Assembly (NCBI RefSeq): GCF_024347435.1
Contig: NZ_AP025482.1
Span: forward strand, 1-64,000
Direction: 5' to 3'
Length of the DNA stretch: 64,000 nt
DNA from: Vibrio cyclitrophicus
Lineage (GTDB): Bacteria; Pseudomonadota; Gammaproteobacteria; Enterobacterales; Vibrionaceae
Numbering within the stretch: position 1 is the stretch's first letter; every line of letters begins with the position of its first letter. The notes under the pieces are model-generated. The model had not been told where the DNA came from. It was given only the letters and a program-made list of their open reading frames with translations, and searched no databases. This document shows, one piece after another, positions 9,690-48,673 of the stretch. Both the position numbers and the translations under genes were made by a program.

Positions 9690-11456
9690 TTATGTGGAGG
9701 TGCTAGTCGTTAACTTACCCGCCTGCTTTGCACTTCTAAGAAGTAAGCTACCAACTGTAACAATAACTACACCACAAAAGACAAAAGCCATGCGACCCCA
9801 GAATGGATTCGGGATCAGCACCATTGCTGTCACCAATAAACCGAAGACTAAGATGAGCTTTCCAAGCATGTCACGTTGTTGACGGTCCATTTCATCTTGA
9901 CCCTCTTCTTCAATAACTGGCGTATCAACATCATTCCAGAACTCTTTCAGTTCCGTATTACGAGCCCCAACAGGCTCTTTGTAGAATCGAGTTGTTAGGC
10001 AGAAGAAACCACCAGTAATGACTAAGTGACCGACAATACCTAACAGTACTTTAAGGTCTTTGGCTTCTCGACCTGTGAAAGGGGTCTCTAAGTTCAGTAA
10101 ATCCGCCACCACATCCGCAGTAATAACAAAACTCACTAAATACGAAACGACCATACCGACCGCAAGCGTTGCCCAAGCGGCCCAATCAGGGGTTTTCTTA
10201 ATGAACATACCAAAGAACAATGGTACGAGGATTGGCATTTGCAGCAGCGTACTGACGTACATCATCGCATCAAACAAGCTCAAACCGCGCAGTGAGTTAA
10301 TAAATAAGGCGACCATAATAATCAATGCACCAAAGACCATCGTCACTATTTGACTCACGCGCATCAATTTTTTGTCATCCGCATTTTTGTCGATAATCGG
10401 TGCATAAAAGTTACGAACGAAGACACCAGAATTGCGATTAAGTCCCGAATCCATCGAAGACATTGTTGCGGCAAATACCGCCGACATGAGTAGACCAACC
10501 ATACCAACTGGCATGACATTTTCTACGAATACCAAATACACCGCATCGGCTGCTTTACTGCCCAGCTCCGCAGCATGCGCTGTTGCTGCATCTGGGTAGA
10601 TAACAGCTGTTACCCAAGGTGGCAAAAACCAAATAGCAGGACCAATCAGCATCAATACAAACGCAAGCAGCGCCGCCTTCCGAGCATTGATTGAATCTTT
10701 CGCTGTCAGGAAGCGATAAGAGTCCTGCATATTGTTGATATTTTGAAGTTGTTTAACAAACATGAAGATGAACCACGACACGAATAGGAGTGGATAATTC
10801 ATGCCAGATCCCATGATGCTATCAGCAGGGAATTGCTCAATAAGGTTAGATGGACCGCCAATTTTCACTAGGGCGGCTACTGCACACACCACAGTTACGG
10901 CCATAATAACCACCATCTGAACAAAGTCAGACGCTACAACGCCCCAGGCACCGCCAATAACGGAGATGAATAGAACAATTAGGCCGGTAACAACAATTGT
11001 CGTCTCTATATCTATTTTAAATACCGCGCTGACAAACAGCGCCAGACCATTTAACCAAATACCCGTGTAAACCACACTTGTTGGCATGGTTGCCCATGTA
11101 AATACCTGTTCGTTTGTCGTGCCAAAGCGACGACGAACACCTTCAATTGGTGTGACAACACGCATTTGACGAAAACGGTATGAAAAGAATAGCCAAGAAA
11201 GTAAAAAGCCAAATGCGTTGGCCATAAATACGACCATGATGGGAAAGCCATCGGTAAATGCTTTACCTGCTGCCCCAGTGAACGTCCACGCACTGAACTG
11301 GGTCATGAAGGCCGTAGAGCCCACCATCCACCACAGCATTTTACCGCCCCCGCGAAAGTAATCACTGGTAGAACTACCTGCGAAGCGTTTAAAGATGACG
11401 CCTATCGCTATCATAAAGATAAAGTAAACGCCCACTACGAGCATATCGACATTCAT
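9690..11456 (-). CDS. Sodium:solute symporter (SSS family), likely oligouronate uptake, copy 1
   Basis: A 588-residue inner membrane transporter with about 13-14 hydrophobic segments. FAGSSTSDYFRGGGKMLWWM near residue 25 and SAFMTQFSAWTFTGAAG-like text just after are typical of SSS transporters; AATMSSMDSGLNRNSGV near residue 345 is the conserved region of helix 8 and contributes to the Na+ site. In marine vibrios such symporters import unsaturated alginate oligomers or monomers. It is nearly identical along its whole length to the plus-strand copy at 11954. A KdgR-like site lies 36 bp upstream of the start. The product would bring lyase products across the inner membrane. Confidence 0.85.
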   Translation of the reverse strand: MNVDMLVVGVYFIFMIAIGVIFKRFAGSSTSDYFRGGGKMLWWMVGSTAFMTQFSAWTFTGAAGKAFTDGFPIMVVFMANAFGFLLSWLFFSYRFRQMRVVTPIEGVRRRFGTTNEQVFTWATMPTSVVYTGIWLNGLALFVSAVFKIDIETTIVVTGLIVLFISVIGGAWGVVASDFVQMVVIMAVTVVCAVAALVKIGGPSNLIEQFPADSIMGSGMNYPLLFVSWFIFMFVKQLQNINNMQDSYRFLTAKDSINARKAALLAFVLMLIGPAIWFLPPWVTAVIYPDAATAHAAELGSKAADAVYLVFVENVMPVGMVGLLMSAVFAATMSSMDSGLNRNSGVFVRNFYAPIIDKNADDKKLMRVSQIVTMVFGALIIMVALFINSLRGLSLFDAMMYVSTLLQMPILVPLFFGMFIKKTPDWAAWATLAVGMVVSYLVSFVITADVVADLLNLETPFTGREAKDLKVLLGIVGHLVITGGFFCLTTRFYKEPVGARNTELKEFWNDVDTPVIEEEGQDEMDRQQRDMLGKLILVFGLLVTAMVLIPNPFWGRMAFVFCGVVIVTVGSLLLRSAKQAGKLTTSTST

Positions 11457-11953: not shown

Positions 11954-13720
11954 ATGAATATTGACATTGTTGTTGTCGGTGTCTATTTCGTCTTCATGAT
12001 CGCTGTAGGCGTCATCTTTAAACGCTTCGCAGGTAGTTCTACCAGTGATTACTTTCGCGGGGGCGGTAAAATGCTGTGGTGGATGGTGGGCTCTACGGCC
12101 TTCATGACCCAGTTCAGTGCGTGGACGTTCACTGGGGCAGCAGGTAAAGCATTTACCGATGGCTTCCCTATCATGGTTATTTTCATGGCCAATGCGTTCG
12201 GTTTTTTGCTGTCTTGGCTGTTTTTCTCCTACCGCTTCCGTCAAATGCGTGTTGTCACTCCAGTAGAAGGGGTGCGTCGCCGCTTTGGCACGACAAACGA
12301 ACAGGTATTTACATGGGCAACCATGCCAACCAGCATCGTTTATACCGGTATTTGGCTAAACGGTCTGGCGCTATTTGTTAGTGCCGTATTCAATATCGAC
12401 ATCGAAACGACCATCGTCATTACCGGCTTGATTGTTCTATTTATTTCCGTGATCGGCGGTTCGTGGGGTGTGGTTGCATCCGACTTTGTGCAAATGGTCG
12501 TCATCATGGCGGTAACTGTTGTATGTGCGGTTGCAGCTCTCATTAAAATTGGTGGCCCAAGCAACTTAATTGAGCAGTTCCCCGCAGATTCTGTTATGGG
12601 TCCGAACATGAATTACCCACTACTGTTCGTAGCATGGTTCATCTTCATGTTTGTTAAGCAACTTCAAAACATCAACAACATGCAAGATTCTTACAGATTC
12701 TTGACTGCAAAAGACTCAACCAATGCGCGTAAAGCAGCGCTGCTAGCGTTTGCTCTCATGCTGATTGGTCCTGCTATTTGGTTTATGCCGCCATGGGTAA
12801 CTGCAGTCCTTTACCCTGATGCTGCGCTAGCCCACGCTGACGCTCTTGGCGGCAAAGCCGCTGATGCAGTTTATCTGGTGTTCGTTGAGCGCGTCATGCC
12901 AGTGGGTATGGTTGGCTTACTTATGTCTGCTGTATTTGCCGCAACAATGTCTTCAATGGACTCAGGTCTAAACCGCAACGCAGGGGTATTTGTTCGTAAC
13001 TTCTACAGCCCTATTATTAATAAGAATGCATCTGAGAAGAAACTGATGCGTGTCAGCCAAGGTGTCACTGTGGTGTTTGGTGCACTGATTATTGCAGTTG
13101 CTCTATTCATCAACTCACTCCGCGGATTGAGCCTATTTGATGCCATGATGTACGTTAGTACATTGCTACAAATGCCTATCCTAGTTCCTCTGTTCTTCGG
13201 CATGTTTATTAAGAAGACGCCTGATTGGGCAGCTTGGGCTACGCTAGCTGTCGGTATGGTGGTTTCTTACATGGTGAGTTTTGTCATCACACCAGATGTC
13301 ATCGCCAACCTTCTAGGTATCGAGGGCGGCTTCACAAGTCGTGAGGCATCAGACTTGACGGTAATGAATGGCATCATCGGTCACCTTGTGTTCACCGGCG
13401 GTTTCTTCTGCCTAACCACTAAGTTCTACAAAGAGCCACAAGGCGAACGTAAAACAGAACTTAACGAGTTTTGGACTGATGTGGCAACACCTGTTATCGA
13501 GGAAGAAGGACAAGATGCGGTTGACCGCCAGCAGCGCAGCATGCTTGGTAAGCTCATCTTAATCTTCGGCGTGCTGGTAACTGCTATGATACTGATACCA
13601 AATCCATTCTGGGGTCGCATGGCATTCTTGTTCTGTGGCGGTGTGGTACTGACCGTTGGTGCTCTGCTGCTAAAAAGCGCCAGAGAGACCAAAGTACTTA
13701 ACCAGCAAACTCAGAGTTAA
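11954..13720 (+). CDS. Sodium:solute symporter (SSS family), likely oligouronate uptake, copy 2
   Basis: 588 aa, the same length as the minus-strand copy and differing from it by scattered, mostly conservative changes (for example MNIDIVVVGVYFVFMIAVG against MNVDMLVVGVYFIFMIAIG). All SSS features are present, including GGGKMLWWMVGSTAFMTQFS and the SSMDSGLNRNAG segment. AGAGGTAAGTG precedes the ATG. It heads a run of plus-strand genes with uxaC and the cytoplasmic lyase, separated from them by a terminator. The most divergent part is the cytoplasmic C-terminal third (for example VIANLLGIEGGFTSREASDL), so the copies may differ in regulation or slightly in substrate range. Confidence 0.85.
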   Translation: MNIDIVVVGVYFVFMIAVGVIFKRFAGSSTSDYFRGGGKMLWWMVGSTAFMTQFSAWTFTGAAGKAFTDGFPIMVIFMANAFGFLLSWLFFSYRFRQMRVVTPVEGVRRRFGTTNEQVFTWATMPTSIVYTGIWLNGLALFVSAVFNIDIETTIVITGLIVLFISVIGGSWGVVASDFVQMVVIMAVTVVCAVAALIKIGGPSNLIEQFPADSVMGPNMNYPLLFVAWFIFMFVKQLQNINNMQDSYRFLTAKDSTNARKAALLAFALMLIGPAIWFMPPWVTAVLYPDAALAHADALGGKAADAVYLVFVERVMPVGMVGLLMSAVFAATMSSMDSGLNRNAGVFVRNFYSPIINKNASEKKLMRVSQGVTVVFGALIIAVALFINSLRGLSLFDAMMYVSTLLQMPILVPLFFGMFIKKTPDWAAWATLAVGMVVSYMVSFVITPDVIANLLGIEGGFTSREASDLTVMNGIIGHLVFTGGFFCLTTKFYKEPQGERKTELNEFWTDVATPVIEEEGQDAVDRQQRSMLGKLILIFGVLVTAMILIPNPFWGRMAFLFCGGVVLTVGALLLKSARETKVLNQQTQS

Positions 13721-13730
13721 CGTAGTGACA

Positions 13731-13757
13731 AGGGGCTGTCCACCAGCCCCTATTTTG
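13731..13757 (+). terminator. Terminator after symporter copy 2
   Basis: AGGGGCTG and CAGCCCCT form a stem with loop TCCAC, followed by ATTTT. It may be leaky, because uxaC follows 49 bp later with no clear promoter visible. Confidence 0.75.
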
Positions 13758-13805
13758 CGTTTAGCAATCCACTAATCACCACTACGTTTTAAAAAGTATT
13801 TCGAG

Positions 13806-15248
13806 ATGAAACCCATGAACCAATACATCCATGACGATTTTCTTTTAACCTCGGATTTGGCTCGCCGCTTGTTCCATGACTACGCCAAAGCCATTCCGAT
13901 TATTGATTATCACAATCACCTAGATGCAAAACAGATTTGGGAAAACCATCGTGCGAGTAACATCGCTGAATGCTGGCTGCATAGTGATCACTATTTATGG
14001 CGAGCTATGCGTAGCAATGGAGTTGAAGAGCACTACATAACCGGCGATGCTCCAGACAAGGAAAAGTTCGAAAAGTGGTGTCAAACCGCCCCGTACCTGC
14101 TCGGCAACCCGCTTTATCAGTGGTCTCACTTGGAGCTAGAGCGATTCTTTAACTGCTCACTACTATTGAATCCAGACAACGACGATGCTATCTGGTCACA
14201 CTGTGAAGCCGAACTTGCTACATCAAGACTCACAACTCAGAATGTATTAAAACAGTGTAATGTCAACACGCTCTGCACTACAGACTCTCCGCTCTCCGAT
14301 CTTCGCTACCATAAACTGATTGCAGAGTCCGACTTTGACGTCGAGGTGCTGCCTACATTCAGAGCAGACGATCTCTTTGCGTTTGGGTCGCCGAGTGCTT
14401 TTCGCAATATGATTGATACATTAAGCACAATCACTTCTCTCCATATAGCATCGGTCAATGACTTTCTCAACGCTATTTCAAAGCGAATCGAAGCATTTCA
14501 TGACGCAGGCTGCCGATTATCCGATCTTGGACTTACTCAGGTGAATTTTGCGCCTTGCTCACATAAAACGGCTCAACTACTATTTAAGAAGCTTTTAACA
14601 GAGCAAGCTCTTAAAGATATCGAAACCACACAACTTAGCTCTTATTTGTTCAACCAACTGGGTCAACACTACCATAGCCGTGACTGGGCAATGCAACTTC
14701 ATATTGGTGTGCTGGTTAACGTCAACGAACGTCGAAAACAGCAGCTTGGTGGCGGTACCGGATTTAGCGTGATGAACGATCGTCTAATTGCTGAAAACCT
14801 CACCCAGTTTCTCAGTCAACTAGATTTAACCAACCAACTACCAAAGACCGTGCTTTACAGCATCAATCCGAGCCACAATGCACTACTCAGTTGTATTGCT
14901 GGCGCTTTTCAAGACAGTGACTCGGCCGCTGGGAAAATCCAATTTGGCGCAGCATGGTGGTTTAACGACCACAAAGACGGTATGGAAGCACAGCTAACCA
15001 CATTAAAAAACGTGGGAGCGCTAGGTCGATTCATAGGTATGTTGACCGACTCCCGAAATGTGTTCTCAATGAGTCGCCATGAGTATTTTCGCCGTGTACT
15101 CTGTAATCAACTGGCCGTTTGGGTTGAAAATGGAGAGCTCCCAAATCACGATGTCCTACTTAAAGAGACGATCGAAAACATCTGCTATTACAACGCATTG
15201 CATTACTTTAACTTTCCTCAATCCACACTCACAGGGAATGCTCAATGA
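13806..15248 (+). CDS. uxaC: Glucuronate isomerase (UxaC family)
   Basis: 480 aa, cytoplasmic, of the amidohydrolase-like UxaC family that converts D-glucuronate to D-fructuronate and D-galacturonate to D-tagaturonate. The metal-binding HxH is in IPIIDYHNHLDAKQIW near residue 35; LHIGVLVNVN, INPSHNALL and GAAWWFNDHKDGMEAQL further on are diagnostic family blocks. A second ATG three codons on is an alternative start. The stop overlaps the start of the next lyase gene by 4 bp, so the two are translated together. The usual downstream partners uxuA and uxuB are not in the window, so the enzyme may instead isomerise an unsaturated-uronate product ahead of KduD. Confidence 0.88.
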   Translation: MKPMNQYIHDDFLLTSDLARRLFHDYAKAIPIIDYHNHLDAKQIWENHRASNIAECWLHSDHYLWRAMRSNGVEEHYITGDAPDKEKFEKWCQTAPYLLGNPLYQWSHLELERFFNCSLLLNPDNDDAIWSHCEAELATSRLTTQNVLKQCNVNTLCTTDSPLSDLRYHKLIAESDFDVEVLPTFRADDLFAFGSPSAFRNMIDTLSTITSLHIASVNDFLNAISKRIEAFHDAGCRLSDLGLTQVNFAPCSHKTAQLLFKKLLTEQALKDIETTQLSSYLFNQLGQHYHSRDWAMQLHIGVLVNVNERRKQQLGGGTGFSVMNDRLIAENLTQFLSQLDLTNQLPKTVLYSINPSHNALLSCIAGAFQDSDSAAGKIQFGAAWWFNDHKDGMEAQLTTLKNVGALGRFIGMLTDSRNVFSMSRHEYFRRVLCNQLAVWVENGELPNHDVLLKETIENICYYNALHYFNFPQSTLTGNAQ

Positions 15249-17284
15249 TCCAGTTCAGCGAACAACAAATTCAAACCATTAAACAACGCGCTTCTGAGCA
15301 AACCATCGTCCAACTCATCGCTGACAATCATGTTGTCCTCAATAGCGAAACATTAGTACCACCCGATGGTCGCGCAACCTGGAACCTGTACTACTTTTGT
15401 CCAGAGCATGGCGTTCGCCTTACGTGGGATCGTGAAAAGCCACTTTCACACTGTTGCCCTGTTGACGGTAAAGAGTTCACGGGTGAACCATACGACGGCG
15501 CTTGGTGGCGATGGCTAAATGGCTTGAATGCAAAAGCGTGCTACGATCTTGGATTGCTTTGGAATCTAACCGGTGAGCAACGTTTCTTCGATAAGGTAAA
15601 AGACATTCTACTTCAATCCGCTAAATACTATCCGGATTACGAGGTTCATGGCGGGATCCCTTACAACGGCCCTGGTAAAGCCAATGCACAAACTCTATGC
15701 GAGGCAAACTGTCACTTAGACCTTGCTCGCGGCTATGACTTTATTCGTGAACAACTGACACCAGACGAGCAGTCGTACATCGAGCAGCGCCTACTTCGTG
15801 AAGGGGCTGAGTTCTTGATAGAGTACCGAACTGACCAACTCCACAACCATGAGATGAAAATCAACGCCACTATTGGCGTGATTGGGCTTATCTTGGAAGA
15901 GAGCCGCTACATCGATTTCGCTCTGAATACTAACTACGGAATCCACTATCAACTTAACCACGGCTGTTCAGAAGAAGGGATGTGGTTTGAAGGTTCGATC
16001 CACTATCACTACTACGCCTTACAAGCGCTGTTGAACTTTGAAAAGATCGCCTACTCGACACCTCATTCAGTAAGCTCTAACCCTAACTTTGTTAAGATGC
16101 TCAAGTTCCCTCTCAACTTGGTGCTGAATACCGGTGACTTCCCCCGTCTCAATGACTGCATAGCCGGCCAAGAACGCATTACTCATTCACATCTGTTTGA
16201 GTTTGCCTACGCTCAGTACCCTTGCAATGAGTTTGCGAGTGTTTTAACCAGCATCTATCAAAATATCTCAAGAGATAACATCGACGCATTACTTTACGGT
16301 GTCGATGAACTTCCAAAAGCTGCTCCACTGCAATGTCAATCTGTCCACACCATTCAAGCGGGCGTGACGATTCATTATGACCAAAGCAATGATCATTCAC
16401 TGCTTGTTAAACACAGTCCATATGGAGGTGAACACGATCACTACGATCGATTAGGATTGATCATTGTTCGCAATGGCAAAGAGATCCTACCAGATCTCGG
16501 CACAACCGGATATGGCGCGGAGCTTCACTACGGCTATTACAAGAATACCGCCACGCATAACACCCTCGTTGTGAATCAACAAAACCAATCGCCAATCGAC
16601 TCTACATTGCTTCACTTCTCTGACTCACCTATTTGTAAAGTCATTGATACGCTTGCTGATTGGAACCAGCCACCTGCGGAAGTTGATAGTCACACCATCG
16701 AGCAGTGGGATAGTCAGGCATATCAGAATGTTATGTTCAGACGTATCTTATTCTGTGTTGGCGAAGCGTATGTAGAAGCAAACTTGATTGCCAACCCGCA
16801 TCAGCAACAGTTGGATTTGACCTACCACATTCGCGGTGAGCATACCGAAACAAATGACTTTGAGATCTGCTCCAACCCGCTGCCGGGCGCACTGAGCCGG
16901 ATGACAAATACACGTCAGTTAAGTTCGGTTTCTGCACACTCCCATCGCTACGCCATTGAAGGACAAACGCCATTTAGCCAGAAGATGGTATTCAGTTCGC
17001 CGTGTGGCGTCTTGATTGGTGAAGCGCCAGATAACCCAGCAACATCAAACCTTGCGTACATCTTGATTCGCTCCAATGCAACCGCGTTAAATACCATGGT
17101 GCTACACGACCTGTCACGCGATGCCAATCTTCTGCTTGAAGATGTATCTTGGAGCGACACTGAAATCACATTCAGTATCAACCAAGATTGCAACAAAACC
17201 ACCATCAAATACAACTTGTATTCGCATTCTTTGCGGACTCAAAATAGGCAGCCTGAAAGCGACAATCTGGCACTCAACGAATAA
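15245..17284 (+). CDS. Heparinase II/III-type oligouronate lyase, cytoplasmic
   Basis: 679 aa without a signal peptide. The N-terminus has a Cys/His pair of clusters (YYFCPEHGVRL and LSHCCPVDGKEF), as in the zinc-ribbon-like start of several heparinase-II/III relatives. The alpha/alpha toroid follows, with NHEMKINATIGVIGL near residue 200 and WFEGSIHYHYYALQAL near 247 (candidate catalytic Asn/His and Tyr), then a beta-sheet domain with GGEHDHYDRLGLIIVRNGK near 400 and the tail YYKNTATHNTLVVN. The fold is shared by PL12, PL15, PL17 and PL21 enzymes, and exo-acting PL15 or PL17 types finish alginate oligomers. Coupling to uxaC suggests release of unsaturated monomers from an imported oligouronide. 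The exact PL family is not decided by eye. Confidence 0.75.
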   Translation: MIQFSEQQIQTIKQRASEQTIVQLIADNHVVLNSETLVPPDGRATWNLYYFCPEHGVRLTWDREKPLSHCCPVDGKEFTGEPYDGAWWRWLNGLNAKACYDLGLLWNLTGEQRFFDKVKDILLQSAKYYPDYEVHGGIPYNGPGKANAQTLCEANCHLDLARGYDFIREQLTPDEQSYIEQRLLREGAEFLIEYRTDQLHNHEMKINATIGVIGLILEESRYIDFALNTNYGIHYQLNHGCSEEGMWFEGSIHYHYYALQALLNFEKIAYSTPHSVSSNPNFVKMLKFPLNLVLNTGDFPRLNDCIAGQERITHSHLFEFAYAQYPCNEFASVLTSIYQNISRDNIDALLYGVDELPKAAPLQCQSVHTIQAGVTIHYDQSNDHSLLVKHSPYGGEHDHYDRLGLIIVRNGKEILPDLGTTGYGAELHYGYYKNTATHNTLVVNQQNQSPIDSTLLHFSDSPICKVIDTLADWNQPPAEVDSHTIEQWDSQAYQNVMFRRILFCVGEAYVEANLIANPHQQQLDLTYHIRGEHTETNDFEICSNPLPGALSRMTNTRQLSSVSAHSHRYAIEGQTPFSQKMVFSSPCGVLIGEAPDNPATSNLAYILIRSNATALNTMVLHDLSRDANLLLEDVSWSDTEITFSINQDCNKTTIKYNLYSHSLRTQNRQPESDNLALNE

Positions 17285-41975: not shown

Positions 41976-42590
41976 TTAGTAACCTGAATGATTACACTGC
42001 ACACATCGGTAAACTTGCATATGCTGTCGGAGAATTTCATTATCCTCGCCGCAATGCCTCTGCTGAGGTGTTACATACTTTAGGCCACTGTGTTTATGTT
42101 CATTGTTATACCAATCAACAAAATTACTAACCCAATACCGAGCGTCTTCAATGGAAGAAAACCCATCCATTGGCCTGAAGGACAATACTTTATTGTTTTG
42201 AAAACGACTCAGAGTATGGGTTGTCGTTGCTTACTCTTAGCCTAGAGTAAGAGCTTACGACCCCAAGGTCATGTATCTTTGCAAGCATGGTGTAACTTCT
42301 CATAGGAGCACCGTTGTCAGAGTGCAAAGTAATGTTGCCTTGCACACACTTTTCCCGTCATGTTGGTTCTTTGGAGTAACTCCGCTGCATATTCGCCTAG
42401 CTCCTGATCATACACTTCTGCACCTACTACTTTTCTATTGAAGATATCCATTATCAAATAGAGGTAATAGTGCTTCCCTCGTATTTTCGATGGAAGATAA
42501 CTGATATCCCAGCTCCATACCTGATTTGGTTTGCAGGCTTTTTGAACCTTTGGTCTAGAAATCATCAGATTATAATGATTATACCCTCAC
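41976..42590 (-). pseudogene. IS3-family orfB transposase fragment, copy B
   Basis: A second, related transposase remnant directly upstream of copy A on the same strand: VWSWDISYLPSKIRGKHYYL with YLIMDIFNRKVVGAEVYDQE (first Asp region), and after frame changes FVDWYNNEHKHSGLKYVTPQ near the end. It is interrupted between about 42185 and 42317. Two relatives in tandem suggest successive insertions of similar elements. Confidence 0.7.
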
Positions 42591-42759: not shown

Positions 42760-43353
42760 ATGGCAAAGATACTGGGATCTAAGCAGAAAAAGTACTTAGA
42801 ATTTTCTATCCATCCGTATGCACTTCCAGCATTTGAATTTTTTAATCAGAGTTCGCTTTTGGTCAATAAGACGAAAATGGAACGTCAGGCTCTAATTGAT
42901 TTAAACGTAGGGTTACCACTGCAGGGGGTATTTGAGTCTAATCATCTTCAAATCGTTTCTGGGTTCGAGTTCATTAGTTTTTCTCTTGCAGAACTCGACC
43001 TATCTGTATGTGAAGTCATTATTCATAGTAATCTGGCAAATAACGATATTGCTCAAAAAGCATGGTCCGCCGTCATTCGTTCACTACTAACGTCACTAGA
43101 TCCACACCAGTTAGAACTCACTCGCAGAGCACTGAATGAGTCTGCTCCAAAATCAGTCCTCAATTCTGTTTTTGGTAAAAACAAGCTATCTCAATCTTGT
43201 CTTGCAGAAATTACGCACCTGTCACGCAGCACACTTGCCCAGCAGTACTCAAAAGCCGAAGGTGATAAGCTATTAGTTCAAGAAGAAGTTCCTACAATTT
43301 TCTCACTACTACAACAGAAGGCTAAAAGTGATCTCTCTGGCATTAAAAACTGA
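42760..43353 (+). CDS. Putative DNA-binding accessory protein of the recombinase trio
   Basis: 197 aa. The C-terminal half carries a helix-turn-helix-like segment, KLSQSCLAEITHLSRSTLAQ, near residue 150, after a long helix (SLDPHQLELTRRALNESAPK). The N-terminal half (SIHPYALPAFEFFNQSSLLV) is strand-like with no known motif. The ATG at 42760 has GAGGTG seven bases upstream; the frame is open a little further 5'. The gene stands 119 bp upstream of the 743-aa recombinase gene on the same strand, so it probably acts as an excision, repression or targeting factor. The family is unknown to me. Confidence 0.65.
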   Translation: MAKILGSKQKKYLEFSIHPYALPAFEFFNQSSLLVNKTKMERQALIDLNVGLPLQGVFESNHLQIVSGFEFISFSLAELDLSVCEVIIHSNLANNDIAQKAWSAVIRSLLTSLDPHQLELTRRALNESAPKSVLNSVFGKNKLSQSCLAEITHLSRSTLAQQYSKAEGDKLLVQEEVPTIFSLLQQKAKSDLSGIKN

Positions 43354-43472
43354 ACATTTCTGATTGGTCTCTCTTATGATATTCAACTAGCCGGTTCATG
43401 ACTTTGATGCCCGCTTTAGTACTTTTAAAGCGATTACTCTGTTACCGATTCATAACCAAAACGGCGGTGTAA

Positions 43473-45704
43473 ATGATTGACGACTTTTTCGAACGGTATA
43501 AAGAGAAGAATATCGAGCGATTTTTTAAACAATTACTCCCTTTTGGCAATGCTGACAATATTGCAATAGCGAAGGAAGTCCAACGATTATGCAACCTCGT
43601 TTCTCCAAAATATAAACAAGAGTTTGAAGAGGTTGAGCTCTTGGTTCAGCGCACCAATACGCTGGCAAATCAAAAGTTGAATAGAACCCTCAACGATGTC
43701 TTCAAAAGCATTAATCGAAACCAGGCCGTTGGGGTACACCATCTTCCAATATTTCTTGCCTCGAACCTTCTTTTGACCTCCTATGACCACACTAGGTTTG
43801 AGCAATATAAAGCATTAACACTGTTGTGCGTTACTCGTCTAGCTTTCATTGGTTCGCATCAATCTAAGATCAAAGCAATTTGTGATGATGTACGTCTGTT
43901 TTCTCAAGGTAAAAGAGAAAATATGGCGGCTTATTTACCGGATATTCATGACCTCGACTTTCCATCGCTTGTTGATGAATTTCAGCTACTTGTCGATGAA
44001 GAAAATACCAACCCTCCACCATCAACCGTGGTTAATCAGCTAAACCACTATCGCCGTCCCTATGAAGCCAGCTTGGATCACAGTGAAGGTTTCACACGGA
44101 AAACCACATCCACAGAGTTCACAAAGAACGGTCAGCTACAAACCAGTGACGTGAAAACTCTGGATGACGATGAAGCGAGTTCATTGTTGGAAATTCAGCA
44201 GATCCAACCATCAACAAAGTTTCATCATCAATGGCAAAGAGAAGATGAATCTGGCGATGCAACGCGCACTCTCAACATCGTCACCTCCAAATCATCGAAC
44301 CCAAAATCTTATGCTGCCGAGGCAATGCTCGCACAAGCCGTCAAAAATAAAATCGCAAAGAAAGAGATGGCTATGGCTTGCGATACCTCTGTTAGCACTA
44401 ATTATGAAATTGGAGCGGTAGTAAATTTTTGCCTTACCCAAATAGAAGAAGATACAAGTACCAAACCTGCACAGTTGCTGCTCATTATGCTAATTACGGG
44501 TAATACTTCAGCACAAGTAAAAAAACTGAAGACAAAGAGACTAAAGCCCTCAGGTTTAATTGGTTTTCAGCGCACACATACCCTACCTTCCCAAAATCAA
44601 CGTCCAGAACTCTGTGCCTTGCTAAATGTTACGGATAAGAAGTACTGGTCTCCTCTGCCCAAGATCGTCACACAGGGACTACAGAGTTTAACCTTTACTG
44701 ATGTAACCGATGACGATCTCAACGACTTACTCAAGAGCCTAAATAAAAATTATGGTACTCACATTACGCTAACTAGAGTTTCAGCCTATTTAAACCAGAA
44801 ACTGACTCACGAGAATATTGACCCAACAATTATCGCTTTACTAACCGGCGCAGCTGCTCAAACTGTTCCTTCGAATTATTATCTAGGCTTATATAGTCTT
44901 AAACTCTATGAGACGTATCGACGATATCTTACGTTTCTTTCTAAATTTCACGGTGATGATGCGTTAATTATTTTTGCCTCTGAGCCGGAAAATATTAAGT
45001 TAGGCTCGCCTTTACATATTGAACTCCGGATCCTTCAATGGCTATTTAAGTCGCTCATTACCAAAATAAAGGATCAAAGGAACAATCTGAGCACTGAGCA
45101 GTGCCACAATGACGTCACACTCTATACTCAGTTAGTCCTTGCTTTATCCTCGGGCTATCGACCAGTGACAGGCTGGTTTGGCAAACTTAGTCACATGCAT
45201 CTCGCTACGGGGGATTACTGGATTTCAGATAAAGAGTCCGGCATTGGTGACAACAGTCGAGTGGTGATCTTGAGCCCAACGGCAATTCAAGTTGTGCGCT
45301 ATTACCTCGAATATTGTGAACAAATGATTGTAGAGCATGGGAATAGCAATGTAGAACTTAGCCGTCGCTACAAGCAGATTGTCGATGGCGATGAGTATCT
45401 GTTTTTTTATCAAAAAGAGGGAGAGTTGTTGCCTTGTACGCCGTCGAATTATACCACGATGATAGATGATATTTGGCCTCTACAACCTAACTGGGCACGA
45501 CATCATATACGATCAACACTGAGTCAAACTGGGGTCGATTCAACCTTAATCAATGCATGGATGGGCCATGCTACAAATGGAAAGCGCTGTTACCACTCCT
45601 ATAGCACCTTATCGAGGACGCAATTAGAAAAAGTAACAGATACTATTGAAGAGCATTTATTACAAATAGGAGTCGAGACTATACAATGGACCAAATTGGC
45701 TTAG
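43473..45704 (+). CDS. Large tyrosine recombinase, 743 aa
   Basis: The catalytic domain is at the C-terminus: Arg563 in LSSGYRPVTGWF, a Lys in ISDKESGIGDNSRVVIL, His677 and Arg680 in ARHHIRSTLSQ, His699 in WMGHATNGKRCYHSYS and Tyr707 or Tyr710 as nucleophile. Ahead of it lies a region of more than 500 residues, with a core-binding-like helical section around 330-480 (ITLTRVSAYLNQKLTHENID) and an N-terminal part without known motif. That is about twice the length of a usual integrase. The stop overlaps the start of the next recombinase by 19 bp, so translation is coupled. No frame break is seen. Confidence 0.75.
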   Translation: MIDDFFERYKEKNIERFFKQLLPFGNADNIAIAKEVQRLCNLVSPKYKQEFEEVELLVQRTNTLANQKLNRTLNDVFKSINRNQAVGVHHLPIFLASNLLLTSYDHTRFEQYKALTLLCVTRLAFIGSHQSKIKAICDDVRLFSQGKRENMAAYLPDIHDLDFPSLVDEFQLLVDEENTNPPPSTVVNQLNHYRRPYEASLDHSEGFTRKTTSTEFTKNGQLQTSDVKTLDDDEASSLLEIQQIQPSTKFHHQWQREDESGDATRTLNIVTSKSSNPKSYAAEAMLAQAVKNKIAKKEMAMACDTSVSTNYEIGAVVNFCLTQIEEDTSTKPAQLLLIMLITGNTSAQVKKLKTKRLKPSGLIGFQRTHTLPSQNQRPELCALLNVTDKKYWSPLPKIVTQGLQSLTFTDVTDDDLNDLLKSLNKNYGTHITLTRVSAYLNQKLTHENIDPTIIALLTGAAAQTVPSNYYLGLYSLKLYETYRRYLTFLSKFHGDDALIIFASEPENIKLGSPLHIELRILQWLFKSLITKIKDQRNNLSTEQCHNDVTLYTQLVLALSSGYRPVTGWFGKLSHMHLATGDYWISDKESGIGDNSRVVILSPTAIQVVRYYLEYCEQMIVEHGNSNVELSRRYKQIVDGDEYLFFYQKEGELLPCTPSNYTTMIDDIWPLQPNWARHHIRSTLSQTGVDSTLINAWMGHATNGKRCYHSYSTLSRTQLEKVTDTIEEHLLQIGVETIQWTKLA

Positions 45705-48673
45705 AAGCTCGCTCGAAAAATCGATTGAAGCAGATAGAGCGTGTTAAAAACAAAGCTAGGCAGTTGTTTGAAAAGCAGTTTCCGAACCCGTCTCACATAC
45801 CAACTCAAGATAACTTTCATGACAAATGGATGCTTTATCTGAGTGATATTACTGAGACATTTGGAGCTCATAAAGACTATCGACGTGCGTTTAACTGGGC
45901 AGTTAAGCAGGTGCTATCATATCAAGAGCAATATAATTGGAAAGTCACTCCACCCTCATATATTGTCACCAATAAACCGCCAAAGCAGCTTAGAACGTTA
46001 GAATGGATGCAGCGCGCATGGCGCGTCCATAACTTCTATCAACATTGGTACCAACAGCTTTTATCAAAACCTGTCGATGACCAGGCGCAGTCGTTTTGCA
46101 ATGTTGTACTTTCGTTTATCTTTCATAGCGGCCATTGTACACCTTGCGTGGTGAAGGCGTTCATTGAATATATTAGTGGTAAATCACTTGCTCTCAAACA
46201 ATGGGATGAAACCCCCTTTGTTTCATTGCTAACAAAAGGGGGGTCATTCAATACCAACATAAAAGTTGACGAGCAGCCACTCACCCAGTTTCAGTGCTAC
46301 TTACATCCTGTTACGCTCGGTTTACTCAGAACATGGCGTCGTTGGAAAGATGAAAACTGGTGCTCTCCTAATGATGAATCCTCTTTGATGAAAATACTCA
46401 CTGGCAACAATCTATCATTGACCTTCGACCAGCTTTGCTGCTCTGGGGTATATGTCTGTGAGCAGCATCAAGGCGTTTCTATTAATCAGGCGTTGGTTGA
46501 GTATCAAGTTGGTTCAACCAAATCTTATAGTTTACCGACTTGCGATCTTGCTCGTATCCTCCATCCTGAGGTTGCCATCGCTAAATATTTTGCACCACAA
46601 TCCACGAAACACGCTTCCAATAAGTCGACATCACATAAAATAGAACGAAACTTCGACACAAGTATAGATACTTATCAGGAACTAAAAGTCAGTCTGTACC
46701 CTAAAAATGGCGCGAAAGAGCTTAGTAAAAAAAAACTATTGGTGGACTTAAATGCTCTGGTTGAACGGATAAAGTCATCCCCTGAACAAGTGAATGAGCG
46801 ACTTATTGTTGACTGGTACCGCCATAAATTGAGTACGACTTGTGGCATTCCCACGATTAAAAGATATCACGCTAATTTGACTCGGAAGTGGATATACCTC
46901 TGCAACCAAAATCAGCTAGATAAACTTGAATCTGACGATCTTGAATCCATTTATCAAAACGCAATAGAGACCCAACCAACAATTAAGTCGCAGAAGTATT
47001 TTACAGCGAGGCTCAAGGACCTGCATGGTTTTGCAGTAGAGCACTATAACTTTGCACAAATTTCTGAGCAGTATCTCTATTCTGACCCCACACAGACTCA
47101 TACTCGATCGGGTTTTATTGATGAAGCCCTATTCCTTGCTTTAATTAATACAATAGAAGCCAGCAATGATTTCGATGACGCGGATAAATTATGCTTACAA
47201 TCCATTAGTATCATTGCTTATCGCTGTGGCTTACGTATTTCTGAAATAAGAAAGCTTCGGATGAAAGATATCGAGCAATCCAATATTGGCTGGTTATCCA
47301 TTCGCTCTAGCTATTTGGGTGAAAATAAAACTGCCAGCAGTTTAAGGAAGGTGCCATTGCACCCTTTGCTGTTAGAGCACGAAGAAGACATAATTAACAA
47401 ATACTTCCATCTGAAATTTGAACAACAAACGTCGAAAACAAAGCCCTTTTTCTCTTTAGGTCATGCCAATTTACCATTTAGTACATTCGAGGTATCACAT
47501 CTCATCGGTTGCCTTCTAAAAGCGTTATCGTTAAATAATCATTTAGTGTTCCATCACCTCAGACACGCGTGCCTCAGCAAACTTCAACTCCTTTTGGAGC
47601 TACCTGACAATCACCCTATACCAAATCAACTCATTCCATATGATGAACAACAGAGGCAGAAAATTAAGGCTACGGTATTTGGCCGTTCGCTGATGACTGG
47701 CTACGATGCTATTGCTGCATTTGCAGGACATGAATCTCCAGCTATGACCTTTAGGCACTATTTTCACTTCTCAGACTGGATCGTGGCACACAAATTGAGC
47801 CTGGCTGACTATTCAACAATAACCAAAAAAGAAGCGCATCATTTAGGTTTACTACCCAAAAATACAGTAAGCGATACAAATAATAATCAGATCTTGAAAG
47901 AATCTAGCGCTTACCTAATTCGCAAACTTCGAGTTAAATATCTAGAAACCCAAGTAGAGGAAGGGAAAGTTCCGGCACTCTCACTAATGATGTCCGACCA
48001 TGAAGTCATCTCGATCCCAATTTGCTATCAAGCATTGACTACTTATAACAAAGGGTTCCAAGTGGGCGATATATGCGCTAAATACAGACTGAAACAGAGG
48101 ACTGTCGATAAGTGGATTAAGAATGCTATGGAAATTAAAAGCTATGCTACAGAATCGAAAGGCACAGAGTACCGACGACACTTTACAAGTGCTCGTATCG
48201 ACAAGTTGTTACCGGCTCAACTCAAAACAGAAGCAGAGCAACTGCGCTTAAATCAATATGCTTCTAAGTTAAACGAGGCCTTGAAAGACGACTTCAAACG
48301 GCATGCAATTCAGGATGCTATAAAATATGCGCTTCAACATACCAGCCCTTCTCGATCTGGGATCTACTTTAACTCACCCGACCGATTAGAGAAGTTTGTT
48401 GAGGCCTGTCACTCGTTTATACCAAAAACGCACTGGAGAGCCGCCACTCAGTTTGTTGAGAAAAGTATTCAGCTTGAAGAGTGGCGTTTAGCTACAAAAG
48501 GAATATCAAGCTACTCGGAGCGGAAACCTTCAGGGCGCAGTAAAAAAAGTCGAGGGGCAATCAGGCTAGAGTTAATTCATCCTCACACACAGCAAGGTAA
48601 GAAGCTCAAAGTCAAACGTTCGTCGTCAACATTGATGTATTTATTCCACATGATGGGGATAATGATGCTTTAA
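45686..48673 (+). CDS. Very large tyrosine recombinase, 995 aa
   Basis: A full set of catalytic residues lies in the middle: Arg517 in AYRCGLRISEIRKL, a Lys in SSLRKVPLHPLL, His623 and Arg626 in VFHHLRHACLSK, His682 in AAFAGHESPAMTFRHYFHF and Tyr692. About 400 residues precede the core-binding domain (SAM-like helices at about 385-470, CGIPTIKRYHANLTRKWIYL). About 290 residues follow the catalytic Tyr, including a possible helix-turn-helix (FQVGDICAKYRLKQRTVDKW) and a basic tail (KPSGRSKKSRG). Such a C-terminal extension is unusual. It is the last gene of the coupled trio. Confidence 0.78.
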   Translation: MDQIGLEARSKNRLKQIERVKNKARQLFEKQFPNPSHIPTQDNFHDKWMLYLSDITETFGAHKDYRRAFNWAVKQVLSYQEQYNWKVTPPSYIVTNKPPKQLRTLEWMQRAWRVHNFYQHWYQQLLSKPVDDQAQSFCNVVLSFIFHSGHCTPCVVKAFIEYISGKSLALKQWDETPFVSLLTKGGSFNTNIKVDEQPLTQFQCYLHPVTLGLLRTWRRWKDENWCSPNDESSLMKILTGNNLSLTFDQLCCSGVYVCEQHQGVSINQALVEYQVGSTKSYSLPTCDLARILHPEVAIAKYFAPQSTKHASNKSTSHKIERNFDTSIDTYQELKVSLYPKNGAKELSKKKLLVDLNALVERIKSSPEQVNERLIVDWYRHKLSTTCGIPTIKRYHANLTRKWIYLCNQNQLDKLESDDLESIYQNAIETQPTIKSQKYFTARLKDLHGFAVEHYNFAQISEQYLYSDPTQTHTRSGFIDEALFLALINTIEASNDFDDADKLCLQSISIIAYRCGLRISEIRKLRMKDIEQSNIGWLSIRSSYLGENKTASSLRKVPLHPLLLEHEEDIINKYFHLKFEQQTSKTKPFFSLGHANLPFSTFEVSHLIGCLLKALSLNNHLVFHHLRHACLSKLQLLLELPDNHPIPNQLIPYDEQQRQKIKATVFGRSLMTGYDAIAAFAGHESPAMTFRHYFHFSDWIVAHKLSLADYSTITKKEAHHLGLLPKNTVSDTNNNQILKESSAYLIRKLRVKYLETQVEEGKVPALSLMMSDHEVISIPICYQALTTYNKGFQVGDICAKYRLKQRTVDKWIKNAMEIKSYATESKGTEYRRHFTSARIDKLLPAQLKTEAEQLRLNQYASKLNEALKDDFKRHAIQDAIKYALQHTSPSRSGIYFNSPDRLEKFVEACHSFIPKTHWRAATQFVEKSIQLEEWRLATKGISSYSERKPSGRSKKSRGAIRLELIHPHTQQGKKLKVKRSSSTLMYLFHMMGIMML

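What the first reader, a model, noticed from the sequence alone, without database searches (positions are those of the whole stretch)
42760..48673. Coupled trio: a small putative DNA-binding protein and two giant tyrosine recombinases
Seen directly: three intact plus-strand genes, 197, 743 and 995 aa; the last two overlap by 19 bp. Both large proteins keep the catalytic Arg, Lys, His-x-x-Arg, His and Tyr set, but have N-terminal regions of about 400-500 aa, and the 995-aa protein has about 290 aa after its nucleophile with a possible extra helix-turn-helix. They sit in DNA where nearly every other mobile gene is broken, yet all three are open. Known multi-recombinase units are RIT elements (three short recombinases), Tn554 TnpABC and the strand-biased circularizing vibrio elements with intA-tfp-intB-srap; lengths and order here do not obviously match any of these. 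This could be a distinct integrative element or a site-specific inversion or decatenation system.
Basis: partly seen in the sequence, partly recalled or inferred. Interest (0 to 1): 0.85.

Follow-up and report, generated by a model that had tools for sequence, protein, structure and literature searches.

The report
Giant recombinase trio of tRNA islands
Three neighbouring genes on a Vibrio plasmid are probably a stranded copy of a gene set that, in related bacteria, marks one end of large DNA islands inserted in transfer-RNA genes; the set pairs a giant DNA-joining enzyme with a relative that usually lacks the cutting residue.

Summary
The three genes are real, intact and conserved as a unit, small-mid-big. 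They match none of the named multi-recombinase families tested. In relatives they lie just inside the left end of genomic islands: of 29 regions examined, 18 have a tRNA 3' half, cut at the anticodon loop, left of the genes (16 tRNA-Gly, 2 tRNA-Asp), usually about 200 bp before the small gene. In 11 Vibrio genomes an intact tRNA-Gly lies 37-130 kb downstream.

An ordinary integrase with excisionase-like and regulator genes is found in 27 of these 29 genomes, and 0.1-4.4 kb after mid and big in 4 of 5 distant loci.

The 995-aa protein keeps its catalytic residues. The 743-aa protein keeps Arg-Lys-His-Arg-His in 37 of 37 relatives, but Tyr is replaced in 36 (Phe in 26); its model holds two recombinase catalytic folds in tandem.

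The window copy keeps the left end at the usual spacing, but sits on a plasmid beside a broken IS3, without partner integrase or recognised right end: probably stranded. My reading: a four-recombinase island machine, SE/GInt-like in composition but not, where compared, in sequence or order. The trio's activity is inferred; integrase-only tRNA-Gly loci exist.

The parts
42561..42586 (.). Left end of the element: ATCATCAG, 9-nt centre (ATTATAATG), ATTATACCC; begins 199 bp before the ATG of the 197-aa gene
   Evidence: in relatives ATCATCAG-CTTGGAAGG/C-(element) begins 198-202 bp before the small gene in 14 of the 15 rows with an assigned start, the window included (G084: 1075 bp); the 9-nt centre differs in the window; the IS3 match on the left stops at 42560.
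42760..43353 (+). Small protein, 197 aa, possible DNA-binding partner
   Evidence: weak Xre-like HTH below cut-off (PF20432, E 0.0016); same position in 16 of 21 loci
43473..45704 (+). 743-aa tyrosine-recombinase-fold protein: helical N-terminus (1-205), poorly modelled linker, degenerate catalytic fold (about 304-492), second catalytic fold (about 510-735) with R-K-H-R-H but no conserved Tyr
45686..48673 (+). 995-aa tyrosine recombinase: long N-terminus, core-binding plus catalytic domains (about 358-709), C-terminal extension with a possible HTH
42012..42560 (-). Broken IS3-family orfB fragment abutting the element's left end (flank, not part of the element)
   Evidence: tblastn 50-60% to the genome's intact IS3, ending at 42559; 96% DNA match to Vibrio plasmids for 42190-42560
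11954..17284 (+). Uronate/alginate catabolism genes (sodium:solute symporter, UxaC isomerase, heparinase/alginate-lyase-like) on the same plasmid; DNA in this area is similar to the region downstream of the trio in G004 and G018 (context only)

Best explanation
The three genes are the left-end recombination operon of a class of tRNA-integrating genomic islands. Shown in relatives: the left end is at the anticodon loop of a tRNA gene, leaving a 3' half beside the operon, and in the Vibrio tRNA-Gly cases an intact tRNA-Gly stands at the far side. Shown: most genomes with the operon also carry an ordinary integrase (here Int392: arm-binding, core-binding and catalytic domains), an excisionase-like protein of about 70 aa and a divergent Xre-type regulator. 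Inferred: Int392 and the 995-aa recombinase are the strand-cleaving enzymes; the 743-aa protein is a non-cleaving, tandem-fold recombinase that holds a core site or activates a partner (a role like that suggested for Tfp/GinC); the 197-aa protein is a DNA-binding auxiliary (Srap/GinD-like role). Together they would excise and integrate the island at the anticodon loop. The window copy is a stranded trio on a 134.6-kb plasmid: left end kept, partner integrase absent, right end not found.
For: Order small-mid-big in 16 of 21 loci. In DNA comparisons of five close loci, similarity begins 228-235 bp before the small gene, at the 3' end of the shared tRNA half; likewise at 231-232 with the more distant G171, except G089-G171 (313-320). 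tRNA 3' half left of the genes in 18 of 29 regions: Gly 16, Asp 2; also in five more distant cases: Asp in Aeromonas L062, Val(GAC) in L162-L164, Val(CAC)-like, read by eye, in Citrifermentans L020. Intact tRNA-Gly(TCC) in all 12 island genomes fetched of 15 other big-gene genomes in the genus (G070, G129, G215 not fetched), 37.4-130.0 kb away in the 11 with both on one contig. No third tRNA fragment in seven islands read end to end. Int392 relatives at 46% identity or more in 27 of 29 genomes; at 65% or more in 13 of 16 genus genomes with a near full-length big gene against 4 of 211 others, Fisher p 2.6e-15, relatedness not corrected. In 4 of 5 distant gammaproteobacterial loci with 5 kb or more after big, Int-Xis and divergent Xre genes follow; also in Aeromonas L062 and Citrifermentans L020. 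Active sites and models.
Against: No experiment shows that the trio recombines anything. Int392 with its excisionase looks sufficient as a classical island integrase, and four Vibrio genomes (G040, G049, G096, G188) have the Int module near an intact tRNA-Gly without any big-gene match. The window genome and G089 have the trio but no close Int392. 11 of 29 regions show no tRNA 3' half at the left end (window, G005, G129, L007, L009, L014-L019); for G129 and L015 only the tRNA-Gly pattern and ARAGORN were tried. The small gene is not general: not found in G129, G134 and G159 (in the last two the mid match starts within 300 bp of the tRNA core), and no profile hit in the second-tier or class-level loci, although second-tier L162 and L163 have 188- and 214-aa ORFs in its place. 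Left flanks of the islands did not match the trio-free tRNA-Gly site of the window's own genome; the right flank did. Distant L181 has mid and big but no Int in 5 kb. Int sits at the far end in Vibrio islands but near the trio in L008, L011, L014, L017, L018.
Confidence: 0.55

Rival explanations
1. Int392 plus its excisionase move the island alone; the trio is a conserved passenger at the left end with another job (for example attachment-site protection, exclusion of competing islands at the same tRNA, or replication-linked processing).
For: Int module near an intact tRNA-Gly without a big-gene match in four Vibrio genomes; two Int392 relatives have all domains of a classical integrase.
Against: The operon keeps its place at the island end at tRNA-Gly, -Asp and -Val targets; the big protein keeps R, K, R, H and Y in 39 of 39 (HxxR His replaced by Tyr in 11); operon and Int co-occur over wide distances.
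Confidence: 0.3
2. The trio is a self-contained transposing unit (Tn554/SE-like) that does not need Int392 and uses island ends and secondary sites as targets; the window copy is one such insertion into an IS3 gene.
For: The window genome and G089 have the trio without a close Int392; the window left end is precise and abuts an IS3 gene, not a tRNA; in G005 too the flank changes right before ATCATCAG.
Against: No right end, inverted end or second IS3 half was found for the window copy; seven islands show no extra tRNA fragment, which an independent insertion into a restored tRNA should leave.
Confidence: 0.15
3. The window copy is a dead relic; intact frames are recent chance survival. (This concerns the copy and is compatible with the best explanation for the family.)
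For: Best Int392 relative in the genome is only 36% identical, no right end, broken IS flank.
Against: All three frames are open over 5.9 kb and the active-site residues are kept.
Confidence: 0.35

Closest known systems
Strand-biased circularizing integrative elements (SE; SE-6945, SE-6283)
   Same: One ordinary integrase, one large recombinase, one recombinase-fold protein without a conserved nucleophile, one small protein; cargo; Vibrionaceae hosts
   Different: No significant similarity to the eight SE proteins compared; order is small-mid-big with the ordinary integrase elsewhere, not intA-tfp-intB-srap; tRNA 3' half and intact tRNA at the ends rather than 13-19 bp imperfect inverted repeats with a 6-bp footprint (PMC10214605: section 3 part 1, sections 6 and 12 and passages read)
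GInts (ginABCD islands)
   Same: Four-component recombination set (GinC lacks a catalytic residue), conserved operon at one end, variable cargo, direct repeats
   Different: ginABCD is one operon, with ABC-transporter, ssb and reductase genes as targets and 10-17 nt repeats (PMC5385486, passages read); here a trio operon plus a separate Int, tRNA target. Gin sequences were not compared
tRNA genomic islands with a tyrosine integrase
   Same: Displaced 3' tRNA fragment at one end, intact tRNA at the other, integrase and excisionase-like gene (definition seen in the abstract start of PMC4383910)
   Different: An extra operon of giant recombinase-fold proteins at the fragment end
Gamma-mobile-trio (GMT)
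   Same: Three-gene mobile unit with a tyrosine recombinase in gammaproteobacteria (recalled; the paper itself is not held)
   Different: NCBIfam GmtY has 441 positions; the three window proteins and two Int392 relatives give no Gmt hit
RIT elements and Tn554
   Same: Several tyrosine recombinases encoded together
   Different: RIT archetype: three recombinases of 315-410 aa, all with the catalytic Tyr (PMC10214605, passage); Tn554 TnpABC sizes and order differ (recalled, not compared)

Membership tests
tRNA genomic island | Displaced tRNA fragment at one end | tested here: met
   In relatives: 18 of 29 regions. Not by the window copy: an IS3 fragment is at its left end
tRNA genomic island | Intact tRNA at the other end, in the same orientation | tested here: met
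   In relatives: 12 of the 12 Vibrio island genomes fetched, 11 of them on one contig with the operon; G070, G129 and G215 not fetched
tRNA genomic island | Empty site in a relative | tested here: inconclusive
   Right flank shared with the trio-free site of the window's own genome; left flank not
tRNA genomic island | Both ends defined for the window copy itself | tested here: not met
   Left end only; no tRNA-Gly core, Int392, Xis, Xre-type gene or second IS3 half found on the 134.6-kb contig
SE | Homology to IntA, Tfp, IntB or Srap | tested here: not met
   Profile HMM and HH comparisons with the SE-6945 and SE-6283 proteins, nothing significant
SE | Gene order intA-tfp-intB-srap | tested here: not met
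   Order is small-mid-big; Int392 lies apart
SE | Strand-biased circle with no empty donor site | not testable with these tools
   Needs PCR or sequencing of junctions
GInt | ginABCD operon at one end | tested here: not met
   The operon has no ordinary integrase in it; Gin sequences not compared
RIT | Three adjacent recombinases of 315-410 aa, all with catalytic Tyr | tested here: not met
   197, 743 and 995 aa; Tyr not conserved in the 743-aa family
GMT | Match to NCBIfam GmtY (NF040693) or the recombinase-associated model NF040692 | tested here: not met
   hmmscan of the three proteins up to E 1: no such hit; the models exist. That NF040692 belongs to GMT is my assumption from recall
Tn554 | TnpA-TnpB-TnpC order and sequence | not tested
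   Sizes and order recalled only
Tyrosine recombinase superfamily (995 aa) | Catalytic fold with R-K-H-x-x-R-H-Y | tested here: met
   R, K, R, H, Y in 39 of 39; HxxR His in 28, Tyr in 11; fold match
Tyrosine recombinase superfamily (743 aa) | Catalytic fold with a conserved nucleophilic Tyr | tested here: not met
   Fold matches, R-K-H-R-H in 37 of 37, but Tyr at 707 in 1 of 37 and at 710 in 8 of 37

The most novel reading that the evidence does not exclude
A four-recombinase machine of a new kind moves islands at tRNA anticodon loops: two cleaving enzymes (an ordinary Int and a 995-aa giant) work with a protein that fuses two recombinase catalytic folds, one degenerate and one holding every catalytic residue except the nucleophile, plus a small DNA-binding factor. 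It would be a third, independently assembled solution beside SE and GInt.
Probability: 0.35. Interest if true: 0.85.

Novelty: new variant of a known kind. Interest (0 to 1): 0.68.

Why it matters
It ties a family of giant recombinases, mostly labelled integrase, recombinase or hypothetical protein, to a definite place: the end of tRNA islands, 37-130 kb long in Vibrio. It also makes a question testable that the SE and GInt work leaves open: why some mobile elements need several recombinase-fold proteins, one without a nucleophile, when ordinary islands manage with one integrase. A protein that keeps R-K-H-R-H in 37 of 37 relatives but mostly has Phe where a Tyr might be expected looks like a natural cleavage-defective recombinase kept by selection.

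Tried and rejected
GMT: rejected, no NCBIfam match (NF040694 turned out to be an unrelated model). SE by sequence: rejected. Phage origin: no match among 50,697 phage records for the 995-aa protein; in IMG/VR two loci of one contig, a big gene split by phage-like genes. Right end of the window copy: searched for the tRNA-Gly core, the reverse of the left end, Int392, Xis, Xre-type gene and the other IS3 half on all of contig C3; nothing convincing. Three IS3 relatives read past the junction did not recover the window's target. Empty site by left-flank genes: no convincing match. Inverted ends: the reverse of the left-end consensus (up to 2 mismatches) appeared once in the seven islands (G005, 40803) and once on C3 (68561), not at ends. 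Foldseek on the 743-aa model gave no match at E 0.001 or better; the two-fold reading rests on VIA-align 2 and an internal HH comparison with E 1.1e-4 but probability only 57. A degenerate fold that I suspected in the N-terminus of the 995-aa protein got no support from the HH comparison or the rows, neither of which excludes it. Literature: the eight searches that ran listed no paper that, from title and abstract start, describes this trio; lists were capped and the library lacks most subscription papers.
Full report
What is there. Three plus-strand ORFs of 197, 743 and 995 aa lie at 42760-43353, 43473-45704 and 45686-48673; the last two overlap by 19 bp. The window is bases 1-64000 of a 134,644-bp contig of a 3-contig, 5.28-Mb genome. 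The contig has ParA- and ParB-type genes and a ParE/Phd-type pair, so I treat it as a plasmid; its circularity was not shown. The genome has no second match to the 995-aa protein.

Family and order. Searches of 5.8 billion proteins gave 22, 14 and 5 proteins at E 0.001 or better, the window's own entries included; those with a source name are Vibrio or Photobacterium. In GTDB representatives 21 loci were found; 16 of 21 carry all three in the order small-mid-big. The others are L004 (mid broken, small not found), L013, L020 and L022 (no small hit) and L021 (big only). Of 227 genomes of the genus, 25 match and 16 have a near full-length big gene, the window's own included. Mid-big pairs at about 23-26% identity occur on Acinetobacter, Aeromonas and Ketogulonicigenium records. 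From here on I follow 29 regions: 16 genomes of the genus and 13 loci. Small is seen in 26 of them (25 by tblastn; L019 by profile) and not in G129, G134 and G159; in G134 and G159 the mid match starts within 300 bp of the left tRNA core, so no such gene fits there.

Active sites. Over 39 big proteins R517, K548, R626, H682 and Y692 are invariant, and H623 is His in 28 and Tyr in 11. Over 37 mid proteins (open frames of 600 aa or more; broken ones left out) R563, K587, H677, R680 and H699 are invariant. Position 707 is Phe in 26, Leu in 5, Trp in 2, Tyr only in the window, and other in 3; position 710 is Phe in 26, Tyr in 8 and other in 3. Three of 14 other proteins have Tyr at 707. The window Tyr lies 8 residues after the His, against 10 in the 995-aa protein, and the model has pLDDT under 50 there (residues 701-711). 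So the 743-aa protein is best seen as a recombinase-fold protein whose nucleophile is not conserved.

Left end and target. In DNA comparison of G194, G215, G004, G018 and G089, similarity starts 228-235 bp before the small gene, that is at the 3' end of a shared tRNA half; with G171, only about 66% identical, it starts at 231-232, except G089-G171 at 313-320. The half belongs to a tRNA-Gly(UCC) gene on the other strand, cut at the anticodon loop. Of 29 regions, 16 have this tRNA-Gly half (in G084 it is 1,075 bp from the small gene) and L008 and L011 have a tRNA-Asp half, read by eye and later matched by pattern. The other 11 (window, G005, G129, L007, L009, L014-L019) do not; G005 keeps only the 17-bp core and L016 has a tRNA-Gly half 5.8 kb upstream. 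For G129 and L015 I tried only the tRNA-Gly pattern and ARAGORN. Five distant cases also have a tRNA half there: L062 (Asp), L162-L164 (Val GAC) and L020 (read by eye as Val CAC). Other distant loci (L019, L022, L061, L063, L166, L168, L175-L182) showed none at the left end with the searches made; L182 has a tRNA-like T arm 1.7 kb upstream.

Right end. In 11 genomes an intact tRNA-Gly lies on the same contig 37.4-130.0 kb downstream. ARAGORN calls it intact in all 12 island genomes that I fetched, G171 having it on another contig; G070, G129 and G215 were not fetched. In seven islands read end to end there are only the left half and the right tRNA (two tandem tRNAs in G084) and no third fragment. 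The right flank resembles the trio-free site of the window's own chromosome (G056, G171, G194 and G089 best), the left flank does not, so the empty site is only half shown. For L008 and L062 an intact tRNA-Asp lies about 77 and 46 kb away, but these genomes have 11 and 5 matches to the tRNA-Asp pattern, so I do not count them as ends.

The fourth recombinase. Near the intact tRNA-Gly, in 11 of the 12 fetched genomes, is an ordinary integrase of about 392 aa, here Int392 (a fragment in G194, broken in G084; G089 has none). Two relatives that I scanned have Arm-DNA-bind_2, SAM-like and Phage_integrase domains. A 70-aa excisionase-like gene lies upstream and an Xre-type gene is divergent (in those checked). 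In L008, L011, L014, L017 and L018 it lies 0.4-2.8 kb after the trio; L008 and L011 share one 8,177-bp block, from just outside the tRNA half to the Xre-type gene, at 96.8%. Int392 relatives at 46% or more occur in 27 of the 29 genomes, though not always shown on the same contig; the exceptions are the window's genome (36%) and G089 (34%). In the genus, 17 genomes have Int392 at 65% or more: 13 of the 16 with a big gene, 4 of the 211 without (Fisher p 2.6e-15, relatedness not corrected). A second tier (45-48% Int) goes with weak-match big genes: 5 of 7 such genomes against 4 of 220; four of those five show tRNA-Val beside the operon or the Int. Of 369 genomes drawn over the class, 9 match the big profile, the window's own included. 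Of the eight others, L175, L176, L178 and L179 have mid and big followed 0.1-4.4 kb later by Int, Xis and a divergent Xre-type gene; L181 shows no Int in 5 kb; L177, L180 and L182 end at the contig end; none has a small-profile hit. Aeromonas L062 and Citrifermentans L020 have the module too; Acinetobacter L061, Ketogulonicigenium L063, L015, L019 and L022 do not in the DNA held.

The window copy. ATCATCAG, nine other bases, then ATTATACCC start 199 bp before the small gene, against 198-202 bp in 13 of the 14 other rows with an assigned start, so this is the same end. The centre is ATTATAATG instead of CTTGGAAGG or CTTGGAAGC. The IS3 match to other Vibrio plasmids ends at 42560, the base before, and the other IS3 half was not found on the contig. 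No Int392, Xis, Xre-type gene or tRNA-Gly core was found there. Uronate and alginate genes on this plasmid lie in DNA similar to the region downstream of the trio in G004 and G018, so plasmid and islands share cargo. I read the copy as an island end carried to a plasmid and separated from its partner.

How it probably works. The best-supported mechanism is site-specific excision and integration at the anticodon loop, with the tRNA 3' half as the repeated end, by Int392 helped or redirected by the trio. The composition (ordinary integrase, large integrase, nucleophile-poor recombinase fold, small protein) is that of SE and GInt. In SE-6283 knockouts of intA, intB and srap abolished circles and the tfp knockout could not be made (PMC10214605: section 3 part 1, sections 6 and 12, and passages read); in GInt all four genes were essential (PMC5385486, passages read). 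That the trio acts in recombination is inferred from position, conservation and co-occurrence. The main evidence against is that Int modules stand near tRNA-Gly without a big gene in four genomes; the far ends of those were not examined. The small gene is also missing or unrecognised in several members.

Known or new. SE is excluded by sequence and order, GMT by family models, RIT by size and Tyr, GInt by order only; Tn554 was not compared. None of the eight paper searches that ran listed a description (titles and abstract starts seen, plus passages of PMC12715929, PMC12259885 and PMC9345347). I call it a new variant of a known kind: tRNA islands with a multi-recombinase operon.

Noticed in passing
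L160/L161 (IMGVR_UViG_3300008221_001529): A big recombinase gene is split at codons 513/514 by phage-like genes, apparently a Mu-like insertion; an Int392 relative lies about 0.8 kb after the second half.
   Followed up: partly
L182:7230-11066: One 1278-aa ORF matches both the mid and the big profile, a possible fusion of the two.
   Followed up: no
G134:C2, about 402.7-403.7 kb: A second, partial big gene (340 aa, C-terminal part) lies inside the same island as the full-length one, suggesting accretion of islands.
   Followed up: no
G089, L010 and L006, DNA left of the trio: Left flanks resemble the region between Int392 and its tRNA in other genomes, as if an island had entered a tRNA restored by an earlier Int392 island.
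   Followed up: partly
window 9690-11456 and 11954-13720: Two very similar sodium:solute symporter genes of 588 aa in opposite orientation on the plasmid (similarity seen in the first 60 residues).
   Followed up: no
G000:C2, about 919.5-919.7 kb: The window genome has two tandem intact tRNA-Gly genes here, with no Int392-type integrase or trio in the 11 kb read.
   Followed up: partly
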